From the NCBI GenBank assembly GCA_944324835.1, contig CALUXV010000007.1, positions 1 through 52,429 on the forward strand: 52,429 nt of DNA, written 5' to 3'. A program made the translations under genes and the position numbers. Of this stretch, positions 27,265-41,361 are shown in pieces (within the stretch, counting starts at the first letter, position 1; every line of letters begins with the position of its first letter). Below the pieces are notes generated by a model that was given only the letters and a program-made list of their open reading frames with translations, had not been told where the DNA came from and did no database searches. The stretch is from Candidatus Gastranaerophilales bacterium (GTDB lineage: Bacteria > Cyanobacteriota > Vampirovibrionia > Gastranaerophilales > Gastranaerophilaceae).

Positions 27265-28434
27265 CTACAATGCAACTGCAACAGCACGAATATTTTCATC
27301 CGTTATATTATTAAGTCCCTGCTGCTTATATTCGTCAGTCAACTTGTCCATAGATTTTAAAATACTCATTGCTTTTAAAATAACCGTCTGATTATCTCCA
27401 CTTAAAAGAGATGCAATACTATCAGAATCCTTTATCAAATCCATTACAAAGAATATAAAATCACTTTCTTCATAAAGTTCTTCATAAAGAAATGAAGTAT
27501 ATTTATTCACATTAATTGTATTTAAAAGAATATTTATATCATTAACTTCATTTTTTGTATTTTTATCTTCATCAAACAAATATTCTTCATTTTCAACAAA
27601 AAGATTAAATTTTTCTTTTGCCAGTATTAATGCAGTTGCAATTGGGCCTGATGGAGATGCTTTCATTAATGAGTCAATAAATCCATAGAATTCATAATCA
27701 ATAATTTGAGATACCGGTATTAACTCAACAAGGCCATTTAAAATATAACAAAATGCAAGTATAGCATCATCATTTAATTCTGTATTCAGCATAGACGCTA
27801 AAGACGAAAGATATGGAATTTCGCCTGCAATATTTTCAGCCATGCCTGAATTTTTCATTGCATCAAATAAACTTTTAACAGCACTAACATCTTGATAATT
27901 AACCAGAAATTTTACAGCTGCATATTGTTCAAAACTGTCTTTTGATTTTAGTTTTTCAATTGCTTGATTATAAGATTGTTTATCATTTAATTTTGAAAGC
28001 GCTCTGGCACAATTTACAGCTAAATCAGGATTTTGAGAATATGCATTGTGTCTTAAATCTTCAAGCGCAGATTCATTTTTTATATAAGAAAAGAAACTTG
28101 CAGCATAAGTTTTTTCCGGCTCTTCACCGTATTTTAATAAATCAAGCATTTTTTGAACATCTGTTTCATCTGCATATTGTGCTAACGTCGATGAGATAAA
28201 ATCATCATAATACGGAGAATAAACTTTTAAAAATTGATAAAGATTTTTATAGTTTGATTTATTACAAGCTTTTGCAAGTCTTTGAGCAACATTCTGTTTT
28301 ACAAAATCAAATAAGAAATCATCTCTCGAAACAAGTTCAGAGAATAATTCAACATCAGATGTATTAATGATACGTTCTGCAACAGGTTCATAACCTTTCG
28401 GGTCTTTTCCTGTCAAATTTTTAATCAAATCCAT
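27265..28434 (-). CDS. HEAT-repeat-like protein
   Basis: This protein of about 389 residues is built of helical pairs resembling HEAT/ARM repeats (for example YAASFFSYIKNESALEDLRH and AVNCARALSKLNDKQSY). The repeats are less regular toward the C-terminus. No signal or membrane segment is seen. It is likely a protein-protein interaction scaffold. I use the ATG at 28434; a TTG two codons upstream (28440) abuts the previous stop. It is probably co-transcribed with the DprA-like gene. Confidence 0.78.
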   Translation of the reverse strand: MDLIKNLTGKDPKGYEPVAERIINTSDVELFSELVSRDDFLFDFVKQNVAQRLAKACNKSNYKNLYQFLKVYSPYYDDFISSTLAQYADETDVQKMLDLLKYGEEPEKTYAASFFSYIKNESALEDLRHNAYSQNPDLAVNCARALSKLNDKQSYNQAIEKLKSKDSFEQYAAVKFLVNYQDVSAVKSLFDAMKNSGMAENIAGEIPYLSSLASMLNTELNDDAILAFCYILNGLVELIPVSQIIDYEFYGFIDSLMKASPSGPIATALILAKEKFNLFVENEEYLFDEDKNTKNEVNDINILLNTINVNKYTSFLYEELYEESDFIFFVMDLIKDSDSIASLLSGDNQTVILKAMSILKSMDKLTDEYKQQGLNNITDENIRAVAVAL

Positions 28435-28440
28435 AGTCAA

Positions 28441-29025
28441 TTAATCTAAGTAAAATACTGTAACAACTTTGTGACCTTCTTCTGCATATTCAACAGCAGT
28501 ATGTAAGGTCTTACTTGTATGTGACAAGAAACAGATTAACTGATTACAATCATCAATAATCTCTCTGTTGCAAACTCTTGATGCATCAGCAAGTGTCATC
28601 ATTGCTCTATCAGCATGTTCAACAATATTAGGGACACCAATTAGTTGGTCTTGTACATCACTAGGCTGCTGACCAATGGTCTGCGGCAAAATAACTTTTA
28701 ATTTTTGCGGATTTGCCTTCATAGCACCTCTAATAGCTGCAGCATTTGTCCCATAAGAACCGCCGGATGTAATAATTGTATTCCCCTGCCCTACAAGAGC
28801 AGTAGTTAGCGTTTCAATCATTTGCTGGTGAGTAATAGCAAGGTTTCTAGAACCGATAATTGCAATACGTTTAGCAGGTTGCTTAATAGTTGCCAATTCC
28901 ATTGATAATTCATCAACGGTATCAGGAGATGAATCCCCGGCATCTAATTTATCGTCAATTGGAACCATAATAGATGCTGCTTGATTTTCATTGTTATTAT
29001 CTGCTAAATTCATAATATCTGACAT
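28441..29025 (-). CDS. DprA/SLOG Rossmann-fold protein
   Basis: This 194-residue protein has a disordered acidic N-terminus (1-55) and one Rossmann-like SLOG domain: RIAIIGSRN, TIITSGGSYGTNAAAIRGA and HKVVTVFYLD. These are the nucleotide or ligand-binding loops of DprA/LOG-type proteins. It lacks the SAM and C-terminal winged-helix domains of a full DprA, so a role in loading RecA on incoming DNA is doubtful. The ATG at 29025 follows AAGGTGG; an upstream GTG (29034) overlaps that site. Confidence 0.8.
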   Translation of the reverse strand: MSDIMNLADNNNENQAASIMVPIDDKLDAGDSSPDTVDELSMELATIKQPAKRIAIIGSRNLAITHQQMIETLTTALVGQGNTIITSGGSYGTNAAAIRGAMKANPQKLKVILPQTIGQQPSDVQDQLIGVPNIVEHADRAMMTLADASRVCNREIIDDCNQLICFLSHTSKTLHTAVEYAEEGHKVVTVFYLD

Positions 29026-29106
29026 TCTTTCCACCTTCTAATTGCAATGTACATTCTTTTCGTGTATGGTAATAATATCATAAAACTTTGATTTTGGAAA
29101 TAGGGG

Positions 29107-31722: not shown

Positions 31723-32580
31723 CTAAACTGAAGCAGTTGCTTTCTTTTGAACAGAAGCACCCGGAATAGACTGCCAGTTTGCAGCCATAATCTTTTTGAA
31801 AGATTTAAGTGCAGTATCTTCAAGTTCGCCAAGTTCTTCAGCTTCCATTATCAATTCTCTTAGAGGAAGTAATGCTCTTTGATCTCTAAGAACCCCAAGA
31901 GCTGCAGCAGCACCTGCTCTAACTAATTCATTTTCAGAACGGTTTTTCATTACTTCAATCAATGCAGGAACAGCTTTTGTATCATTTAATTTACCTAAAG
32001 AAGTTACTGCATAAATTCTAACATTAACCCATTCATCATAAAGCATATTAATAATATGATCAACAGCCTTTTTATCTCCGATTTCGCCTAATGCTCTTGT
32101 AGCATCACAACGAACGTTAACTTTTTCGTGATTTAATGAACCAATTAAAGCATCTGTTGCAACATCGCCGATTTCAATTAAAGCATCTGTAGCTGTAATA
32201 CAAACTTGAGGATTTTCATCATTTAATGCTTCAACTAAAGGTTCAACAACAATCTTGCCGCCTAAACGTCCTAAAGCACGAGCAGCACGAACTCTTACGT
32301 CTACGTTACGGTCTTCACGTAATGATTCAATTAAGAATTCAGTTGCTTTTGTATCACCCAATTCTCCTAAAGCTCTTGCAGCATATAATCTAACAGAGCC
32401 GTTTTTATCGTTTCTTAATACATCAATTAATGGTTCAACAGCTTTAGAATCGCCTAACTCACCTAAAATTCTAGCGGCGTTATATCTAACTTTTTCAGAA
32501 CTACTTGTTTTTAAATCTGATAATAATTCGTCAAAAGATTTTTTGCTTTGTTTTTTCTTACCGATAACTGATATTGTCAT
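31723..32580 (-). CDS. PBS-lyase-type HEAT-repeat protein
   Basis: This 285-residue protein consists of seven to eight regular HEAT repeats of about 31 residues, each like VRLYAARALGELGDTKA followed by a L-I-x-x-L-x-D helix. This is the pattern of phycobilisome-lyase (CpcE/NblB) HEAT proteins. No lyase substrate is expected here, so a scaffold role is more likely. GGAGG lies 7 bases before the ATG. The 300-bp region upstream (32581-32881) is very AT-rich and shows no gene or clear element. Confidence 0.88.
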   Translation of the reverse strand: MTISVIGKKKQSKKSFDELLSDLKTSSSEKVRYNAARILGELGDSKAVEPLIDVLRNDKNGSVRLYAARALGELGDTKATEFLIESLREDRNVDVRVRAARALGRLGGKIVVEPLVEALNDENPQVCITATDALIEIGDVATDALIGSLNHEKVNVRCDATRALGEIGDKKAVDHIINMLYDEWVNVRIYAVTSLGKLNDTKAVPALIEVMKNRSENELVRAGAAAALGVLRDQRALLPLRELIMEAEELGELEDTALKSFKKIMAANWQSIPGASVQKKATASV

Positions 32581-32881
32581 TACATAACCTCCGACATATA
32601 AACTTTAATTTCTTCACACTCTTATATAAAAATTTTGAGTTTAAAATAATTGCTTTTTTTCTTTGGTTTATTAAGTTTTGTTTACAATGTTATTAAATTG
32701 TTACTCGATAAAGGGTAAAACCTACACTTTATTTTCTGCGTACTAATAATATAACATATCTTTTATTTTTCTTCATAATTTTGTATATAAAATAATATTT
32801 TTTTATAAACTTTTTTTAACATAATCATTAAAAAGCCGACTATGACTACATTTTATTTTTTATTTTTATACATTATTATTA

Positions 32882-34561
32882 CTATCCAGGGATAGTAATA
32901 ATAAATTTACTACCCTTATTTAGTTTACTTTTAACTTCTATTTTTCCATTGTGCTTTGCAATAATTTTTGAAGAAATAGCTAACCCCAATCCTGTTCCGA
33001 CTCCAACTCCTTTTGTTGTATAACCTGCTAAAAATATCTTATCGACATCTTTTATTCCGCATCCGGTATCTTCGATAGATATTATTAATTTATTATCTTC
33101 AAATTTTGTTGTAATTGTAATTATTCCATTACCTTTAATTGCTTGACAGGCATTGATTAGTATATTCATAAATACTTGATTTAGCATATTAGGATAACAT
33201 TTAATCAGAGGTATTTCTCCATAATGTTTTATAATTTGTATTCTTTTTTTAGTTTCGTGTCTTATTAAATCTAAAGTTAAATCTAACTCTTTGTTAATAT
33301 TTGCTTCTTGTAATTCCGCCTCATCAAGGCGAACAAATTTTTTAAGTGAAATAACAAGATGGTTTATTCTTTGTATTGCCTCTTTATCTGTTACGTTGAT
33401 ATCTGATAAAATCTCTGCAACCTGAGGATTATCTACTTTTTTTATTAATTTTGTAAATATTTCGTTGTTTGATTTTATTGACGCAACAGGGGTATTAATT
33501 TCGTGGGCAACACCTGCTATTAACTGACCCAGCGAAGCCATTTTTTCCGAATTAATCAACTGAATTTGTGTATCTTTTAATTCTTTTAGTGTTGCTTTCA
33601 ATTCTTTTACTGTTTCCAAATTCTTTTTATATAATTTTGCGTGAACAATTGCAGTACCAAGCTGAGAAGATATGCTCTCAAGAATATCAATTTCTTCTCC
33701 CAGTTCTCTTTTTTGCCGTGATAATAAAACAACAATACCTAAAAGTTCATTTGTATGATAAATAGGAACGATAATCCGCTGCACAGATTCCTTATACGGT
33801 TCGGCCTCCTGATACTCTTTTATACATCTTGAATATGATATTTTATTATTTTTAATTTGTTTTAATACTAAACTATCATATGTAATAATATTATTTATAT
33901 TTATTTTTTTTATAGAATGAATAATTTTAAAAGTTTTTTTTTCGTTTGTTGCATAATATGCATTAAAAGCCCCGAACATAAAAGCTAATTCTTTAAGTGT
34001 AGGCTTAATAATACTAGGCAAATCTATCGACTCTCTTATAATATTAGAAATTTTATTAATCAAAGCCATTTTTATAGCCTGCGCCTGCGCTTTTTGCTTA
34101 ATATGCAGTAAATCTTGATTTTCATTTTTTAATTTATTAATTTGATTTTCAAGAAAATTATAACTATTTTCTAATAAATTTAACTTAACCTGAGCCGAAA
34201 CATCCGTAAAAAATATAATAGTATACTTTCCTCTTTTAACAGTATTTATATCATAATAAGAAAATTCATTTTGCTTATATTGATATGAAATATGTGCAAC
34301 AAAACTTTCTTTTGAGCGGACCGCTTGTATAATTGGAGAATGAACCTCTGTATCTTCAGAATCAAGCGGACAAATTTCATAATTTATTTTATGTAAAAAT
34401 TTTTTTAAATTTTTAAAATCTTGAAAAGAACGATTAAATAAGTTGTTTTTATAGACAAGCTCAATGTCATTATTAACAACTAATACAGGGCTATTAAATT
34501 TATTAAAAAGCTCAAATTTTTCCACGCATTCATTATATCTTCTTTTTGTAAACGATTGCAA
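32882..34561 (-). CDS. Soluble GAF-domain sensor histidine kinase
   Basis: This protein of about 559 residues has an N-terminal PAS-like region (17-125), a coiled coil (130-165), a GAF domain (170-305) and a second coiled coil. A HisKA domain carries the phospho-accepting His353 in GVAHEINTPVA. A HATPase_c domain has the N-box MNILINACQAI, EDTGCGI and GTGLGLAIS. It has no membrane segment, so it senses a cytosolic signal. The start is uncertain: TTG at 34561 or GTG at 34525, neither with a good ribosome site. No receiver-domain gene lies nearby; the divergent gene has an OmpR-like DNA-binding domain without a receiver. Confidence 0.9.
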   Translation of the reverse strand: MQSFTKRRYNECVEKFELFNKFNSPVLVVNNDIELVYKNNLFNRSFQDFKNLKKFLHKINYEICPLDSEDTEVHSPIIQAVRSKESFVAHISYQYKQNEFSYYDINTVKRGKYTIIFFTDVSAQVKLNLLENSYNFLENQINKLKNENQDLLHIKQKAQAQAIKMALINKISNIIRESIDLPSIIKPTLKELAFMFGAFNAYYATNEKKTFKIIHSIKKININNIITYDSLVLKQIKNNKISYSRCIKEYQEAEPYKESVQRIIVPIYHTNELLGIVVLLSRQKRELGEEIDILESISSQLGTAIVHAKLYKKNLETVKELKATLKELKDTQIQLINSEKMASLGQLIAGVAHEINTPVASIKSNNEIFTKLIKKVDNPQVAEILSDINVTDKEAIQRINHLVISLKKFVRLDEAELQEANINKELDLTLDLIRHETKKRIQIIKHYGEIPLIKCYPNMLNQVFMNILINACQAIKGNGIITITTKFEDNKLIISIEDTGCGIKDVDKIFLAGYTTKGVGVGTGLGLAISSKIIAKHNGKIEVKSKLNKGSKFIITIPG

Positions 34562-34659
34562 ATAAAAATTTACATCTTGAAATATTTTAGTTCAATAAAA
34601 AAAATTTATGTTACATTAGTAATTGTCAAAAGAAATGGGATTAGAAATAGGAGATTCTA

Positions 34660-35268
34660 ATGGCGGAGTATTTAAGTAAGGAAGAGATAAAGCAGTGGAG
34701 AAGTTCTTTAGAAAAAATCACTCTAGAAGAATTTGCTGCAAGATTAGGTAAAGTTGTTGCGGATTCAAGACCAACAAATGATCTTGTTGATAAAGTTATG
34801 AATGGAACAACTTCGTCCAATAATGAAGTTCTAAAGAACAGAAGGACTGAAAACTTATCTAGTATAGCAGAACGTGCATTTGAAAGAGAAAGACAACTAT
34901 CACATACGCCATTCTCCTTTAAGGCACCTGTTGAAAATAACAATATAAATGAAGTTAAACAAGTTGCCAACACCTCATCTAAAAATGAAATTGTTGAAAA
35001 AATTGTTAAACGACAAGAAATAGAATCCAACGATAATTTAAGAGAAGAAGTTAACATTGTTTTAAAGAAAAATTTAACAGACAGAGAACAAATTGTCTTT
35101 GATTATTTCTTAAATCATAGAAACACAACTGTTTATGCTAAAGATTTGGCTGCACTATTAAATTTACCAAGAGACTACATTTATAAGTATATTAAAAATT
35201 TACGTGCAAAAATTGAAGGCGACAAGCTTAAAAATGCTGAACGCGGCGGTTTTATTTTAACAGATTAA
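34660..35268 (+). CDS. Winged-helix DNA-binding protein (OmpR-type C-terminus, no receiver)
   Basis: This 202-residue protein has an N-terminal third that is charged and probably flexible. Residues 135-202 fit a winged helix: LTDREQIVFDYFLNHRN, then LAALLNLPRDYIYKYIKNLRAKI, and a wing ERGGFIL. The ending recalls OmpR/PhoB C-terminal domains (LRxKI ... GxGY.L). There is no phospho-acceptor receiver domain. AGGAG precedes the ATG. It is the first gene of an operon with the DUF262-like gene (6-bp gap) and is divergent from the histidine kinase. Confidence 0.75.
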   Translation: MAEYLSKEEIKQWRSSLEKITLEEFAARLGKVVADSRPTNDLVDKVMNGTTSSNNEVLKNRRTENLSSIAERAFERERQLSHTPFSFKAPVENNNINEVKQVANTSSKNEIVEKIVKRQEIESNDNLREEVNIVLKKNLTDREQIVFDYFLNHRNTTVYAKDLAALLNLPRDYIYKYIKNLRAKIEGDKLKNAERGGFILTD

Positions 35269-35274
35269 GGTCAT

Positions 35275-36417
35275 ATGTTACATACTGGAATATTAGATTT
35301 TTTAATGAGCAAAGCTCATAATATATCTGTATTGAATTGTTCAAGCAATTTTGAATATACTGATGATTTGTTTGAAATGATTCTAACTGGCAAGTATTGT
35401 GACTCTGATATAGACTTAGGCATTTTATATGTAAGAAGATTAGCCGATTATCACTATCTGCTGGTAGATGGGAAGCGCCGGCTTATATCTTTTATACTAA
35501 TAATCAAAGCAATTGCGGATTATTATGCAGATTTATCTCCGGAAGATGCTTTTCTGCAACATCCTGTTCAGACAGATTGTTTAAAAGTTTTATCCATGCT
35601 AAAAATTCGTCTTTTTGGACTTGAAAAAACAGTATACGATAAAATTATTAATAATGAACCAATATCTTATAATGAAAAACAAACTGAATTATACAGGACC
35701 TTAAATTTATTCAGAGAAAATATCAAATATTTAGATTTTGATGTTGAACAGTTTTATGAACTTCTTTTACGGCTAAAAGTAAATATTGTATTTTTGAATG
35801 ATTCTGATGAACGGGAAATATTCTGTACGTTGAATAAAAGTTTAAGACCGTTAAATCAATTAATGTTAATTAAATCATATCTTGCAGAATTAAACTGTGC
35901 AGAATTTGTTAATGAACTATATTTTCTTTTTGGTTATAAAGAAGAAATTTTTGTTTCATTTTTCAAAGCGTATTTATCTCCAAAATTTAATCGAATAATA
36001 TCAGATGATAATTCTGTATATGATTATTTTGTTAAATATATTGACATGGTAAGAAAATTTCAGGACTTCAAAGCTATTTTAGCCAGTATTACTAAAACGG
36101 CAAAAATTTATAAAAAAATGTACAATGCAGATTTTATGGATACTGAAATGCGCAATATGTTTATCAAAATAATTTCTAATGATGGACGTGATACATTCTC
36201 ATATCTATTAGAACTTTGTGAAGATTATGAAAACAAATATTTATCAAAAGAAACTTTCTTAGAAGTATGTAATATTATTTATACATACATTTGGGAACGA
36301 AACAAAAAAACATCCCATGTTAATGAAAATATAGACTTTTCTAAAATGGTACATGAATTAAATAAAGTAATTTATGATGAGCATGCAGCTAATGAAGGGA
36401 ATAAAGGTAACCAGTAA
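35275..36417 (+). CDS. DUF262 (GmrSD N-terminal)-like protein
   Basis: This 380-residue protein has an N-terminal half that follows the DUF262/ParB-like pattern. YLLVDGKRRLISFILIIKA (61-79) stands in the place of the usual VIDGQQRLTTL nucleotide-binding/catalytic motif, with Gln-Gln changed to Lys-Arg. REIFCTLNKSLRPLNQLMLI (180-199) matches the F-x-x-L/I-N...L...D/L-I-K element. No HNH/DUF1524 nuclease domain is visible in the remaining 180 helical residues. It is therefore not a complete GmrSD-type restriction enzyme. It may be a regulator or an orphan NTP-binding protein. Confidence 0.65.
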   Translation: MLHTGILDFLMSKAHNISVLNCSSNFEYTDDLFEMILTGKYCDSDIDLGILYVRRLADYHYLLVDGKRRLISFILIIKAIADYYADLSPEDAFLQHPVQTDCLKVLSMLKIRLFGLEKTVYDKIINNEPISYNEKQTELYRTLNLFRENIKYLDFDVEQFYELLLRLKVNIVFLNDSDEREIFCTLNKSLRPLNQLMLIKSYLAELNCAEFVNELYFLFGYKEEIFVSFFKAYLSPKFNRIISDDNSVYDYFVKYIDMVRKFQDFKAILASITKTAKIYKKMYNADFMDTEMRNMFIKIISNDGRDTFSYLLELCEDYENKYLSKETFLEVCNIIYTYIWERNKKTSHVNENIDFSKMVHELNKVIYDEHAANEGNKGNQ

Positions 36418-38284: not shown

Positions 38285-39580
38285 ATGATTGATAGATATT
38301 CTTTACCTGAGATAAGTGAAATATGGACTTTGCAGTCAAAATTTAGTTATTATTTACGTGTAGAGCTTGCCGTTTGCGAGGCTTACGCTAAGCTGGGAAA
38401 AATACCTCAGGAAGATTTGTTAAAGATAAAATCTTTTGCTTCTTTTAATTTAAAAAGAATTGAAGAAATTGAAGCAGAAGTTCATCATGATGTTATTGCA
38501 TTTTTAACAAATGTAAATGAGAGTGTCGGAGAAGAACTTGCCAAGTATATACATATGGGTTTAACAAGTTCAGATGTAATTGATACCGCTTTTGCTCTGC
38601 AGATAGCAGATTCATCCCAAATAATAGATGAAAAATACAGAACATTGTTAGATACAATGCGCAATATGGCTGCTAAATATAAACATACGGTTTGTATCGG
38701 ACGCTCTCATGGTATTCATGCCGAAGTTATGACATTTGGGGTGAAAGTTTTAAGCTGGCTTGATATATTTGAGAGAGTATACAGAAAGTTCCGTTATTCT
38801 GTTGATAATATAAAAGTCGGTCAAATTTCTGGCCCTGTCGGAACATACAGTAACCTTCCAATGGAGGTAGAAAAATTAACATGTGAAATTTTGAAATTAA
38901 AACCGGCACGAATTTCAACACAAATTATAGCCAGAGATATTCATGCTGATTATCTTCAAACCCTTTCTTTAATCGCATCAGTTGTAGAACAAATTGCTGT
39001 TGAAATCAGACATCTTCAAAGAACAGAAGTGAGAGAGGTTGAGGAAGGTTTTTCTAAAAATCAAAAAGGTTCTTCCGCTATGCCGCACAAAAAGAATCCG
39101 GTTTTATGTGAAAATTTATGCGGATTAGCACGAATTGTCAGAGCAAATGCAATAGCGGCAATGGAAAATATTGCTCTATGGCATGAAAGAGATATTTCTC
39201 ATAGTTCGGCTGAGCGTATCATTTTCCCGGACTCTTTAGAGTTAATTGATTTTATGCTGGCACGTTTGAATAAAGTATTGTCTAATCTGGTTATAAAAGA
39301 AGAGAATATGGAAAAGAATACAAATCTGTTCGGCGGAATTGTTTATTCTCAAAAAGTTTTGCTAAAAATGGTTGATAAAGGCTTAACCAGAGAAGATGCA
39401 TATAGAATTGTCCAAAAACATGCATTAGATGCATTTGAAAATAACGGCGATTTCAGAAAAAATCTGGAATCTGATAATGAAGTGCTAAAAATTCTTTCAA
39501 CAGAAGAAATTGAAGAATGTTTTAACAAAGAAGATTATCTGAAAAATATTGATAATATGTTTGCGAAATTTGATATTTAA
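38285..39580 (+). CDS. purB: Adenylosuccinate lyase
   Basis: PurB cleaves SAICAR and adenylosuccinate, releasing fumarate, in purine synthesis. The 431 residues include GLTSSDVIDT, a conserved GRSHGIHAEV His region, and the family signature GSSAMPHKKNP near 262-272, which carries the mobile catalytic Ser loop. The length is typical of the Bacillus/cyanobacterial type. AAGG lies upstream of the ATG. It overlaps the convergent 594-aa gene by 4 bp. Confidence 0.96.
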   Translation: MIDRYSLPEISEIWTLQSKFSYYLRVELAVCEAYAKLGKIPQEDLLKIKSFASFNLKRIEEIEAEVHHDVIAFLTNVNESVGEELAKYIHMGLTSSDVIDTAFALQIADSSQIIDEKYRTLLDTMRNMAAKYKHTVCIGRSHGIHAEVMTFGVKVLSWLDIFERVYRKFRYSVDNIKVGQISGPVGTYSNLPMEVEKLTCEILKLKPARISTQIIARDIHADYLQTLSLIASVVEQIAVEIRHLQRTEVREVEEGFSKNQKGSSAMPHKKNPVLCENLCGLARIVRANAIAAMENIALWHERDISHSSAERIIFPDSLELIDFMLARLNKVLSNLVIKEENMEKNTNLFGGIVYSQKVLLKMVDKGLTREDAYRIVQKHALDAFENNGDFRKNLESDNEVLKILSTEEIEECFNKEDYLKNIDNMFAKFDI

Positions 39581-41361
39581 TCCTTTTCGGCAAGTAGGTC
39601 TTCTGTTAAGTTTGCTATTTCTTTTGGTGATTTATATAAGGTTTTAATGTTTGATAATGCAAATAATGTTGAATCCAGTTTATTATTATTTCTGCGATAG
39701 TTGAGATTGTGGAATAATGCTATGTTAGCTGCGAATTCAGAATTGTTGTCAGGAGCCATATAAGGAAATATCAAACAGTATCTTGATTCTTCCCAACCTG
39801 TTTTTCCAAGAGATTTTTCAAGTAATTTTTTAGATTTTAATTCAACATTATTATTCCAATTATTTTCATTTGAATTATTTTTTATAATAATATCCTGATT
39901 TTGACGTTTTCTTTTATTAATTTGTGCATCAATTTTTCCTTCTGCATAATCGGAAATATAAAGTGCGGCAAAGATTATATTATTATTATTTTGTTTAGCA
40001 TTAATACTATTTACTGAATATTCGAAATTTGCATCATCTAAAAAAGAATTCCCTGATAAGGAGCAATCATCTAACAGAACCAGAACTTTATTTTGAAAAT
40101 GAAGTACATTTGTAAAATGTGGATTCTTTAACGTTATAAATTTTTCTTTTGGAATATTATTTATTTTTTGATATTGATAATCAATTAAATCATAGCTTTT
40201 AGAGTGGTTTGGTATAATATATATAATATCTTCCGATTTTTTACCTAAGCTTTTGGCTGTTTTGATTATTTTTGAATGAATTTCTTTTAAATCTTTTGAA
40301 ATTCTTTCAGGAGAATAGTTTTCAAGAGAATTTTCAAGATATGTTGCAAGTCCGTCTTTTGCTTCAACTTGGTCGTCAACATTCTTAAATTTTTTCATAA
40401 CTGTTGCATCTATAAGTTTATTGAGTTCATCTCTTGACATTTGTTCAGGACGAAGCTGGTTATAAATATTTTCTACTGACGGTTTATTTTCATTTTTAAT
40501 TATAATTGGCTCTATTCCCAGTTTTTCGCACCTATCAAGTATCTCTTTATCAACAGCTTTGGATACCGGCATGTTGTATTCTTTGGCTTTGTTTAGTAAA
40601 TCAATTGTTGTTTCTTTAAGCGGTTTACTTCTGTCAATAAAGCTTATCCCATTTTCAAAACCTGACAAAACAAAGAATTTAGCATTTTTCCATTTTTTTA
40701 AATCTTCTATTGCTTCAGGAGAGTCTTTCTTTAGTTGTTCTAAGTCTTTTAATTTGTTATCATCTAAGAAAATTGCAAAATTATATGGTTCTACTTCATA
40801 TAATTCTTTTTGGTTAAAAAGATAATTCATTGCAGAATTTAAACCAAAATTTTCAGAAAACGCCTTTTTAAACGTTTTATTTGCTATAAAGAATTTAAAC
40901 ATGCAACTATTATTGAATATTCTTCCCGCTTCATTATTTTGCAAAGCTTCACCTATTTTATCAATACTTCTGATATTCCCGAATTGTGTTATCAATTGCA
41001 TTGCACCTACTGCTTCTGTTTTTGAAAATTCAGTTGTCTCTGCAATTTCATTTATAGTAGATTCTATTTCTTCTTTACTTATTTCATTAAGTTTTGATTG
41101 ATAATTTTCACAAACAGAGTCAAGTGTTTTGACCGTAGAATCTTTAAACGGCGGTCTTTCTGCTCTGCTAAAGTTTCCTAAAAAATATACTGCAGGGTAG
41201 CTGAAAGTTCCTGACGACATTTTGTTGACAGGAATTGAAATTTTAGAATTTTGAATTTGATTTTGTTTGGCTTGATACTGCCCGACTTTTAATGGAGAGA
41301 TTGTTAACATATTCGTATTATTGAAAACACCTAAATCTGAAATTTTATGTATTTGAAACAA
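39577..41361 (-). CDS. Large hypothetical with phosphoribosyltransferase-like motif
   Basis: This 594-residue soluble protein is Lys- and Asn-rich. Near residues 420-440, VLVLLDDCSLSGNSF resembles the PRPP-binding loop of type I phosphoribosyltransferases (V-V-D-D-x-x-T-G-x-S/T). It is preceded by a strand-rich IIYIIPNHSKSYD segment. The N-terminal part (1-120) begins with a long polar leader containing YFLGNFSR, then helical segments. I do not recognise the full architecture. The PRTase reading is from motif only; the T-G position is S-G here. Confidence 0.65.
   Translation of the reverse strand: MFQIHKISDLGVFNNTNMLTISPLKVGQYQAKQNQIQNSKISIPVNKMSSGTFSYPAVYFLGNFSRAERPPFKDSTVKTLDSVCENYQSKLNEISKEEIESTINEIAETTEFSKTEAVGAMQLITQFGNIRSIDKIGEALQNNEAGRIFNNSCMFKFFIANKTFKKAFSENFGLNSAMNYLFNQKELYEVEPYNFAIFLDDNKLKDLEQLKKDSPEAIEDLKKWKNAKFFVLSGFENGISFIDRSKPLKETTIDLLNKAKEYNMPVSKAVDKEILDRCEKLGIEPIIIKNENKPSVENIYNQLRPEQMSRDELNKLIDATVMKKFKNVDDQVEAKDGLATYLENSLENYSPERISKDLKEIHSKIIKTAKSLGKKSEDIIYIIPNHSKSYDLIDYQYQKINNIPKEKFITLKNPHFTNVLHFQNKVLVLLDDCSLSGNSFLDDANFEYSVNSINAKQNNNNIIFAALYISDYAEGKIDAQINKRKRQNQDIIIKNNSNENNWNNNVELKSKKLLEKSLGKTGWEESRYCLIFPYMAPDNNSEFAANIALFHNLNYRRNNNKLDSTLFALSNIKTLYKSPKEIANLTEDLLAEKD

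What the first reader, a model, noticed from the sequence alone, without database searches (positions are those of the whole stretch)
32882..36417. Receiver-less signalling neighbourhood: soluble kinase, OmpR-like wHTH and DUF262-like protein
A GAF histidine kinase lies divergent from a winged-helix protein that ends like OmpR but has no receiver domain. The latter is in an operon with a DUF262-like protein whose DGQQRL motif reads DGKRRL and which lacks the HNH nuclease domain. DUF262 proteins usually belong to anti-phage restriction (GmrSD-type). Here the combination could be a defence-derived or repurposed regulatory system.
Basis: partly seen in the sequence, partly recalled or inferred. 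Interest (0 to 1): 0.5.

Follow-up and report, generated by a model that had tools for sequence, protein, structure and literature searches.

The report
Disarmed defence protein beside regulator gene
In a gut bacterium related to cyanobacteria, a protein descended from a virus-fighting DNA-cutting enzyme has lost its blade and part of its target sensor but keeps a possible nucleotide-binding motif, and its gene sits right behind that of a core DNA-binding regulator, so it may have been turned into a regulatory part.

Summary
In detail: a histidine kinase (32882-34561, -), a 202-aa winged-helix (wHTH) protein without receiver (34660-35268, +) and a 380-aa DUF262 protein without HNH (35275-36417, +) are there. 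The nearest named relative is Candidatus Gastranaerophilales.

Two of the three belong together. In the window's family, every orthologue of the DUF262 gene that still has its N-terminal domain directly follows the wHTH gene (14 of 14 genomes in one sample, 13 of 13 in another; 8 genera). On a UvrD tree this arose once and was later lost in some lines. The kinase usually pairs with a HEAT-repeat gene and meets the wHTH in only 4 genera.

Relatives form a stripping series. Unlinked copies in sister families lack HNH but keep the GmrS motifs QR, DGQQR and FxxxN (6 of 6 keep QR). Linked copies lost QR (0 of 22) yet keep DGxxR and [FY]xxxN (22 of 22). A third group keeps only the helical C-terminal half, under purifying selection. 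The wHTH is an order-wide core protein with its own conserved promoter element.

Best reading: a GmrSD-type restriction protein domesticated as a partner of the wHTH, perhaps gated by nucleotide. Ancestry, operon and motif losses are shown; partnership and switch are inferred.

The parts
34660..35268 (+). wHTH protein, 202 aa: conserved N-terminal ~45 residues (YLSKEEIKQWRSSLEKITLEEFAARLGK), variable charged linker, C-terminal winged-helix-like domain; no receiver
   Evidence: found in 141 of 146 genomes of the order sample
35275..36417 (+). DUF262 (GmrSD_N) protein, 380 aa, without HNH; follows the wHTH gene by 6 bp
   Evidence: Pfam PF03235 E 5.7e-9 above cut-off; PADLOC Orf5 PDLC02693 E 7.3e-19, residues 60-344; VIA-align to DndI 9jfl Z 13.3 and SspE 6jiv Z 10.2
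35332..35346 (+). place of the lost P-x-Y-Q-R cavity motif (residues 20-24 read LNCSS)
   Evidence: alignment with HNH-bearing relatives; QR pair in 0 of 22 linked, 6 of 6 unlinked canonical and 2 of 2 HNH-bearing proteins
35467..35481 (+). retained DGxxR motif (D65-G-K-R-R69), place of the NTP-binding DGQQR of GmrS/SspE/DndI
   Evidence: 22 of 22 linked orthologues keep DGxxR; function of the motif from passages of PMC4619093, PMC13251355, PMC11662687
35821..35835 (+). retained FxxxN motif (F183-C-T-L-N187)
   Evidence: [FY]xxxN in 22 of 22 linked, 6 of 6 canonical
35845..36414 (+). helical C-terminal half (about residue 191 on), the part that survives alone in other genera
   Evidence: C-only ORFs in 19 of 146 genomes; no N-domain remnant in 12 of 12 loci tested; model pLDDT mostly 75-94 for residues 191-340
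34566..34589 (+). 24-bp conserved element upstream of the wHTH gene; can be read as two ACRTYWTG-like half-sites 10 bp apart
   Evidence: scored above the 99.9th percentile of shuffles in 28 of 34 f1 genomes, 0 of 14 outside f1; one copy at the wHTH gene in 16 of 16 chosen genomes, elsewhere at control level
34612..34617 (+). possible extended -10 (TGT-TACATT) of the wHTH promoter
   Evidence: read from the sequence; not tested
32882..34561 (-). orphan histidine kinase (likely start 34525); neighbour, probably not a member of the pair
31723..32580 (-). HEAT-repeat protein, the kinase's recurrent neighbour
   Evidence: Pfam HEAT_2 E 2.3e-46; next to the kinase in 13 of 20 further genomes

Best explanation
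The pair 34660-36417 is an operon of a lineage-core winged-helix DNA-binding protein and a domesticated, disarmed GmrSD-type restriction protein. Steps shown: the DUF262 protein descends from the GmrS-linker half of a DUF262-HNH defence protein; HNH is gone in all orthologues of this subfamily; the QR pair of the modified-DNA cavity is gone in the copies linked to the wHTH, while the DGxxR and [FY]xxxN motifs stay; the gene has sat behind the wHTH gene since one ancestor and is under purifying selection. Steps inferred: the DUF262 protein binds the wHTH (or the wHTH on DNA) through its helical C-terminal half, and the retained DGxxR pocket binds an NTP so that nucleotide binding changes the wHTH's DNA binding; the wHTH controls its own operon through the 34566-34589 element. 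It would then work like a nucleotide-gated ParB-fold co-regulator (as DndB or VirB are described) instead of a nuclease.
For: GmrSD_N above Pfam cut-off and PADLOC Orf5 match that covers only positions 63-359 of a 543-residue model. Relatives with HNH exist and show the full layout. Motif census: QR 0/22 linked, 6/6 unlinked canonical, 2/2 HNH-bearing; DGxxR and [FY]xxxN 22/22. Linkage 14/14 and 13/13; linked clade of 25 genomes on a UvrD tree with support 1.0, with loss in G010 and in an 11-genome clade. Between the window and G031 or G032 the pair stays while the other flanking genes differ. dN/dS 0.03-0.26 over 21 pairs in the genus, C half lower in 20 of 21 and tied in 1 (dS mostly above 1). 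C-only proteins under purifying selection (six usable pairs 0.018-0.258). wHTH promoter element. In SspE and DndI the Arg of DGQQR is needed for NTP hydrolysis, and P/Y/Q of the cavity motif lie in the modified-DNA sensor (passages); GxxR is the phosphate motif of the ParB fold and DndB is described as an ATP-dependent repressor (passages).
Against: No contact between the two proteins was shown; the wHTH model is unusable (pLDDT 48) and no complex could be modelled. The wHTH occurs in most genomes without the DUF262 gene (52 of 58 against 24 of 58), so it can work alone, and the gene was lost at least twice. C-only and canonical relatives are not beside the wHTH gene. Between genera the N half of linked copies is as well conserved as the C half (31.5 against 31.7% identity), which does not suit a decaying N half and leaves open a function I have not thought of. 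The promoter element is absent in all 4 C-only genomes and has no enriched second copies (82 hits against 130 for the control), so no regulon came out. Nucleotide binding is a motif argument; both Q residues are gone in most linked copies.
Confidence: 0.4

Rival explanations
1. The DUF262 protein is still a defence protein without HNH, like the DUF262 parts of Menshen, Dazbog or PD-T4-2, and the wHTH controls its expression.
For: DUF262 genes without DUF1524 take part in such systems (passages of PMC10952713); canonical unlinked relatives keep all three GmrS motifs; a transcription factor before a defence gene is a common layout (recalled).
Against: The cavity's QR pair is lost in 22 of 22 linked copies; the wHTH is an order-wide core gene usually without DUF262; no second defence gene was seen beside the pair in the window, neighbours being HEAT, Aconitase_C and exonuclease-type genes, though PADLOC was run only on the two proteins and six relatives; inheritance looks vertical with losses.
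Confidence: 0.2
2. The DUF262 protein has taken on some other structural or adaptor task, and sits behind the wHTH gene only to share its promoter.
For: The helical half alone persists, unlinked, in 19 of 146 genomes under purifying selection, so its task does not need the neighbour; in three f6 genomes the full copy is followed by a nucleotide-kinase-like gene.
Against: In f1 each N-domain-bearing orthologue stays behind the wHTH gene across 8 genera although flanks change.
Confidence: 0.28
3. Three-gene signalling module: the orphan kinase phosphorylates or otherwise drives the wHTH or DUF262 protein.
For: Divergent kinase in g1, G022, G030 and G010; kinase has no receiver partner beside it in the window.
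Against: Kinase is elsewhere in the other genera, even in linked G031 and G032, and recurs with the HEAT gene (13 of 20); the wHTH has no receiver domain.
Confidence: 0.07
4. Decaying pseudogene that hitch-hikes behind a core gene.
For: Repeated loss, loss of motifs and of HNH.
Against: Open frames in the linked relatives apart from contig cuts, dN/dS well below 1, DGxxR in 22 of 22.
Confidence: 0.05

Closest known systems
GmrSD / Type IV restriction proteins (Pfam GmrSD_N PF03235 plus GmrSD_C PF07510)
   Same: DUF262 domain, DGxxR and FxxxN, helical stretch after DUF262
   Different: no HNH domain, no QR pair, operon with a core wHTH gene, vertical inheritance in one order
SspE and DndI (phosphorothioate-sensing DUF262-HNH nickases; PDB 6jiv, 9jfl)
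   Same: fold of DUF262 plus helical region by VIA-align (Z 10.2 and 13.3)
   Different: no nuclease part; residues of the PT-sensing cavity (P, Y, Q) replaced; no ssp or dnd genes seen in the window neighbourhood
PADLOC Orf5 (PDLC02693)
   Same: best defence model, E 7.3e-19
   Different: match stops at position 359 of 543, before the HNH part
DUF262 proteins without DUF1524 in Menshen, Dazbog, PD-T4-2
   Same: DUF262 without HNH (described in PMC10952713, passages)
   Different: those act with nuclease or other defence partners; here the partner gene is a wHTH core gene; direct sequence comparison not made
DndB and VirB (ParB-fold, nucleotide-dependent transcription regulators)
   Same: proposed way of working: ParB-fold nucleotide pocket that controls transcription (PMC12704722, passages)
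   Different: single chains of other ParB-fold branches; here pocket and DNA-binding domain would be on two proteins
OmpR/PhoB response regulators
   Same: weak likeness of the C-terminal winged helix
   Different: no receiver; unique conserved N-terminal motif and variable linker

Membership tests
GmrSD Type IV restriction enzyme | DUF262 (GmrSD_N) domain | tested here: met
   PF03235 36.8 bits, cut-off 33.2; two linked relatives, G031 and G032, fall below cut-off (32.1 and 24.2 bits)
GmrSD Type IV restriction enzyme | QR pair | tested here: not met
   0 of 22 linked proteins
GmrSD Type IV restriction enzyme | (I/V)DGQQR motif | tested here: not met
   reads VDGKRR here; only DGxxR is kept, in 22 of 22 linked proteins
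GmrSD Type IV restriction enzyme | FxxxN motif | tested here: met
   FCTLN; [FY]xxxN in 22 of 22
GmrSD Type IV restriction enzyme | HNH (DUF1524, GmrSD_C) nuclease domain, same or neighbouring chain | tested here: not met
   no hit in the 380-aa protein nor in the eight other window proteins scanned
GmrSD Type IV restriction enzyme | place in a defence island or mobile element | tested here: inconclusive
   nine window proteins scanned with Pfam show no second defence gene; PADLOC not run on the neighbours
ParB/Srx-fold NTP-binding protein | GxxR phosphate motif | tested here: met
   G66-K-R-R69; motif definition from passages of PMC12704722
ParB/Srx-fold NTP-binding protein | NTP binding or hydrolysis | not testable with these tools
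   needs protein
OmpR/PhoB response regulator | receiver domain | tested here: not met
   no receiver family in the window protein or among the 16 families matched by 35 orthologues
OmpR/PhoB response regulator | Trans_reg_C winged helix | tested here: inconclusive
   window protein E 0.2; 23 of 35 orthologues E<=0.01, best 5.8e-5
Menshen / Dazbog / PD-T4-2 DUF262 component | orthology to the DUF262 component and presence of partner genes | not tested
   no comparison with these proteins was made
Two-component system with the divergent kinase | stable gene pair with its regulator | tested here: not met
   kinase adjacent to wHTH in 4 genera only; HEAT gene is its recurrent neighbour

The most novel reading that the evidence does not exclude
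A phage-defence restriction protein was stripped step by step (nuclease, then modified-DNA sensor, in a side branch the whole N-terminal domain) and domesticated inside one bacterial order as a nucleotide-gated partner of a lineage-specific core transcription factor. That would be a defence-to-regulation conversion caught with living intermediates: HNH-less canonical copies, linked QR-less copies and C-terminal-only copies.
Probability: 0.33. Interest if true: 0.65.

Novelty: new variant of a known kind. Interest (0 to 1): 0.45.

Why it matters
If true, it shows how a restriction enzyme can be turned into a housekeeping part while keeping its nucleotide pocket, with intermediates in sister families that can be expressed and compared. 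It would also give a first handle on a wHTH protein that is core to a whole order of gut bacteria, matches no curated family above cut-off in the window copy, and whose targets are unknown.

Tried and rejected
Fold of the wHTH: AlphaFold2 with three near-identical sequences gave pLDDT 48, so no fold search was made with it. Fold of the DUF262 protein: model pLDDT 69.6, residues 1-31 and 34-46 under 50; Foldseek gave nothing at E<=0.001 (62 matches up to E 10, top ones unrelated); VIA-align second look put DndI and SspE first (Z 13.3, rmsd 11.1; Z 10.2, rmsd 19.0), though its notes warn that mostly helical models can reach such Z values. PDB sequence search with the window protein alone gave nothing useful; the family profile gave DUF262 proteins (9jfl E 2.8e-18, SspE 6jiv E 6.3e-9).

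Regulon search: the 18-bp core with up to 3 mismatches gave 82 hits in 10 genomes against 130 for the reversed control, so no regulon can be claimed. Shared k-mers upstream of the wHTH gene were close to shuffles at 7 and 8 bases and above the mean but near the maximum of shuffles at 9 (17 against a maximum of 14). The PWM was trained on the sites it scores, so its 28 of 34 is partly circular; the strict pattern is the better test, but its 16 genomes were picked because I had seen the element there.

Kinase as partner: rejected for lack of linkage. Pseudogene: disfavoured. Frameshifted N domain in C-only genes: rejected for 12 loci (controls 4 of 4); the other C-only genomes were not tested. 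Weak A1 hits to other DUF262 proteins (for example two short ones in G074, E 4e-8 and 4e-6, and many 500-800-residue ones) were set aside as other subfamilies; my linkage counts concern matches better than E 1e-60, without the HNH-bearing G077. Rows dropped in the motif census: G001 and G011 (cut by contig ends; both lack QR and keep DGxxR), L056 and L057 (same contigs as G004 and G007).

Papers: four searches with DUF262 together with regulator, wHTH or repurposing terms, or the order's name and two more with the order's name listed no paper on such a pair; this says nothing about papers outside that library. Only passages were seen of PMC4619093, PMC10952713, PMC13251355, PMC12704722 and PMC11662687; all others only as search listings.
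Full report
What is there. The three genes are as described. The kinase has HisKA and HATPase_c above cut-off and a sub-threshold GAF; its likely start is GTG 34525. The wHTH protein (202 aa) has no receiver. The DUF262 protein (380 aa) passes Pfam's cut-off for GmrSD_N and has no HNH. It starts 6 bp after the wHTH stop. The closest named relative is a MAG called Candidatus Gastranaerophilales (DUF262 protein 91% identical). The window's genome holds one copy.

Who belongs to whom. In 58 relatives the wHTH is found in 52 and the DUF262 protein in 24. Of the 24, 14 have it on the same strand directly behind the wHTH gene (eight of the window's genus, G001 and G011 cut by contig ends, plus G018, G022, G030, G031, G032), 6 have a full copy in families f5-f7 on a contig other than the wHTH gene's (in G050, 66% complete, no wHTH was found), and 4 have only the C-terminal half, on another contig. 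In an order sample of 146 genomes the wHTH is found in 141. With the family profile, 63 have some DUF262 match, but many are distant DUF262 proteins, often with long frames. At E below 1e-60 there are 20 genomes: 13 in family f1, all 13 adjacent to the wHTH gene; 6 in f5-f7, unlinked; and G077, which carries GmrSD_C and is set aside. Nineteen further genomes have C-only copies, all on a contig other than the wHTH gene's. The two samples overlap. Linked genera: g1, g5, g12, g16, g24, g25, g26, g47. The gap varies from a few bases to about 270. In a phylum sample of 244, all 108 wHTH matches fall in the order and none of the other 136 genomes matches.

History. A UvrD tree of 44 genomes groups 25 genomes, among them all 13 linked ones that it holds, with support 1.0. 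Inside it the gene is missing in G010 and in a clade of 11 genomes (support 1.0). The four C-only genomes group together with support 0.80 only. So the link most likely arose once and was kept while flanking genes changed: between the window and G031 or G032 the pair is what stays. UvrD stands in for a species tree; one gene is not proof.

Stripping series. The f5-f7 copies have no HNH but keep the three GmrS motifs, with an aromatic residue before QR in 6 of 6. Linked copies: QR 0 of 22, DGxxR 22 of 22, [FY]xxxN 22 of 22. Passages of PMC4619093 name these motifs and assign DGQQR to NTP binding; passages of PMC13251355 place P, Y and Q of the cavity motif in the phosphorothioate sensor of SspE and show that the Arg of DGQQR is needed for GTP hydrolysis; PMC11662687 shows the same Arg matters in DndI. 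The C-only copies show no N-domain remnant in 12 of 12 loci tested.

Selection. In the genus, dN/dS of the DUF262 gene is 0.03-0.26 over 21 pairs, the C half lower in 20 and tied in 1, but dS is mostly above 1 and two C-half values are saturated. For the C-only genes six usable pairs give 0.018-0.258 and all 25 finite values of 36 pairs lie within 0.018-0.258. In linked genus g25, 15 finite values of 28 pairs give 0.049-0.262; g47 gave none. Against a simple story of N-half decay, N and C halves are equally conserved between linked genera (31.5 and 31.7%).

Structure. The model of the DUF262 protein is moderate (pLDDT 69.6). VIA-align sets DndI (Z 13.3, 326 residues) and SspE (Z 10.2, 306 residues) ahead of the rest, while Foldseek itself finds nothing significant. 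A profile search of PDB sequences gives DndI at 2.8e-18. I take DUF262 ancestry as shown on sequence, with the model as weak support.

The wHTH and its promoter. The N-terminal 45 residues and the C-terminal domain are strongly conserved over the order, the linker is not. A 24-bp element lies mostly 86-117 bp before the start in 28 of 34 f1 genomes (range 69-135), in 0 of 14 others and in 0 of the 4 C-only genomes. With a strict pattern it occurs once at the wHTH gene in 16 of 16 chosen genomes, with 7 further hits against 9 for the reversed control; a looser search shows no enrichment. It can be read as two half-sites 10 bp apart before a possible extended -10, as OmpR/PhoB-type activators like (recalled); I did not test that reading. 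Private autoregulation is my inference.

The kinase. A strong match exists in 52 of 58 genomes, next to the wHTH gene only in g1 (7 of 8 genomes; in G007 the contig ends), G022, G030 and G010. Around 20 further kinase copies that I picked, the HEAT gene follows in 13, and in 5 others the kinase follows a run of three other genes. So the kinase is a neighbour, not a member.

Mechanism. I commit to: disarmed GmrSD-type protein as partner of the wHTH, binding through its helical half and gated by a nucleotide in the DGxxR pocket. Shown: ancestry, loss of HNH and QR, retention of DGxxR and [FY]xxxN, operon layout and its single origin, purifying selection. Inferred: protein contact, nucleotide binding, effect on transcription. 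PMC12704722 (passages) describes GxxR as the phosphate motif of the ParB fold, varied NTP use, and DndB as an ATP-dependent repressor, which makes the inferred way of working plausible without making this protein a member of those families.

Noticed in passing
window 34566-34589: Conserved 24-bp element private to the wHTH promoter within family f1; no enriched second copies in the genomes searched.
   Followed up: partly
window 31723-34561: Kinase and HEAT-repeat gene form a recurrent pair over the order, also away from the wHTH gene (13 of 20 further genomes).
   Followed up: partly
L111-L114, L136, L138-L145: C-terminal-only DUF262 descendants of 211-240 aa, a family of their own under purifying selection, with no Pfam hit above cut-off in the two scanned.
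   Followed up: partly
L106, L109, L115: In three f6 genomes the full unlinked DUF262 gene is followed by a small nucleotide- or phosphomevalonate-kinase-like gene.
   Followed up: no
window 39577-41361; L057 5015-8403: 594-aa protein without clear Pfam hit; the relative L057 has two adjacent copies of 553 and 575 aa. A stretch LDDCSLSG looks like a phosphoribosyltransferase motif (recalled, not tested).
   Followed up: no
window 27265-29034: A HEAT-like 391-aa protein and a DprA/SLOG-like 197-aa protein lie end to end on the minus strand.
   Followed up: no
L070, L074, L077, L078, L081, L086: Where the DUF262 gene was lost, the wHTH gene often follows two tandem copies of a thymidylate-kinase-like gene (name read from the sequence, not from a family search).
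   Followed up: no
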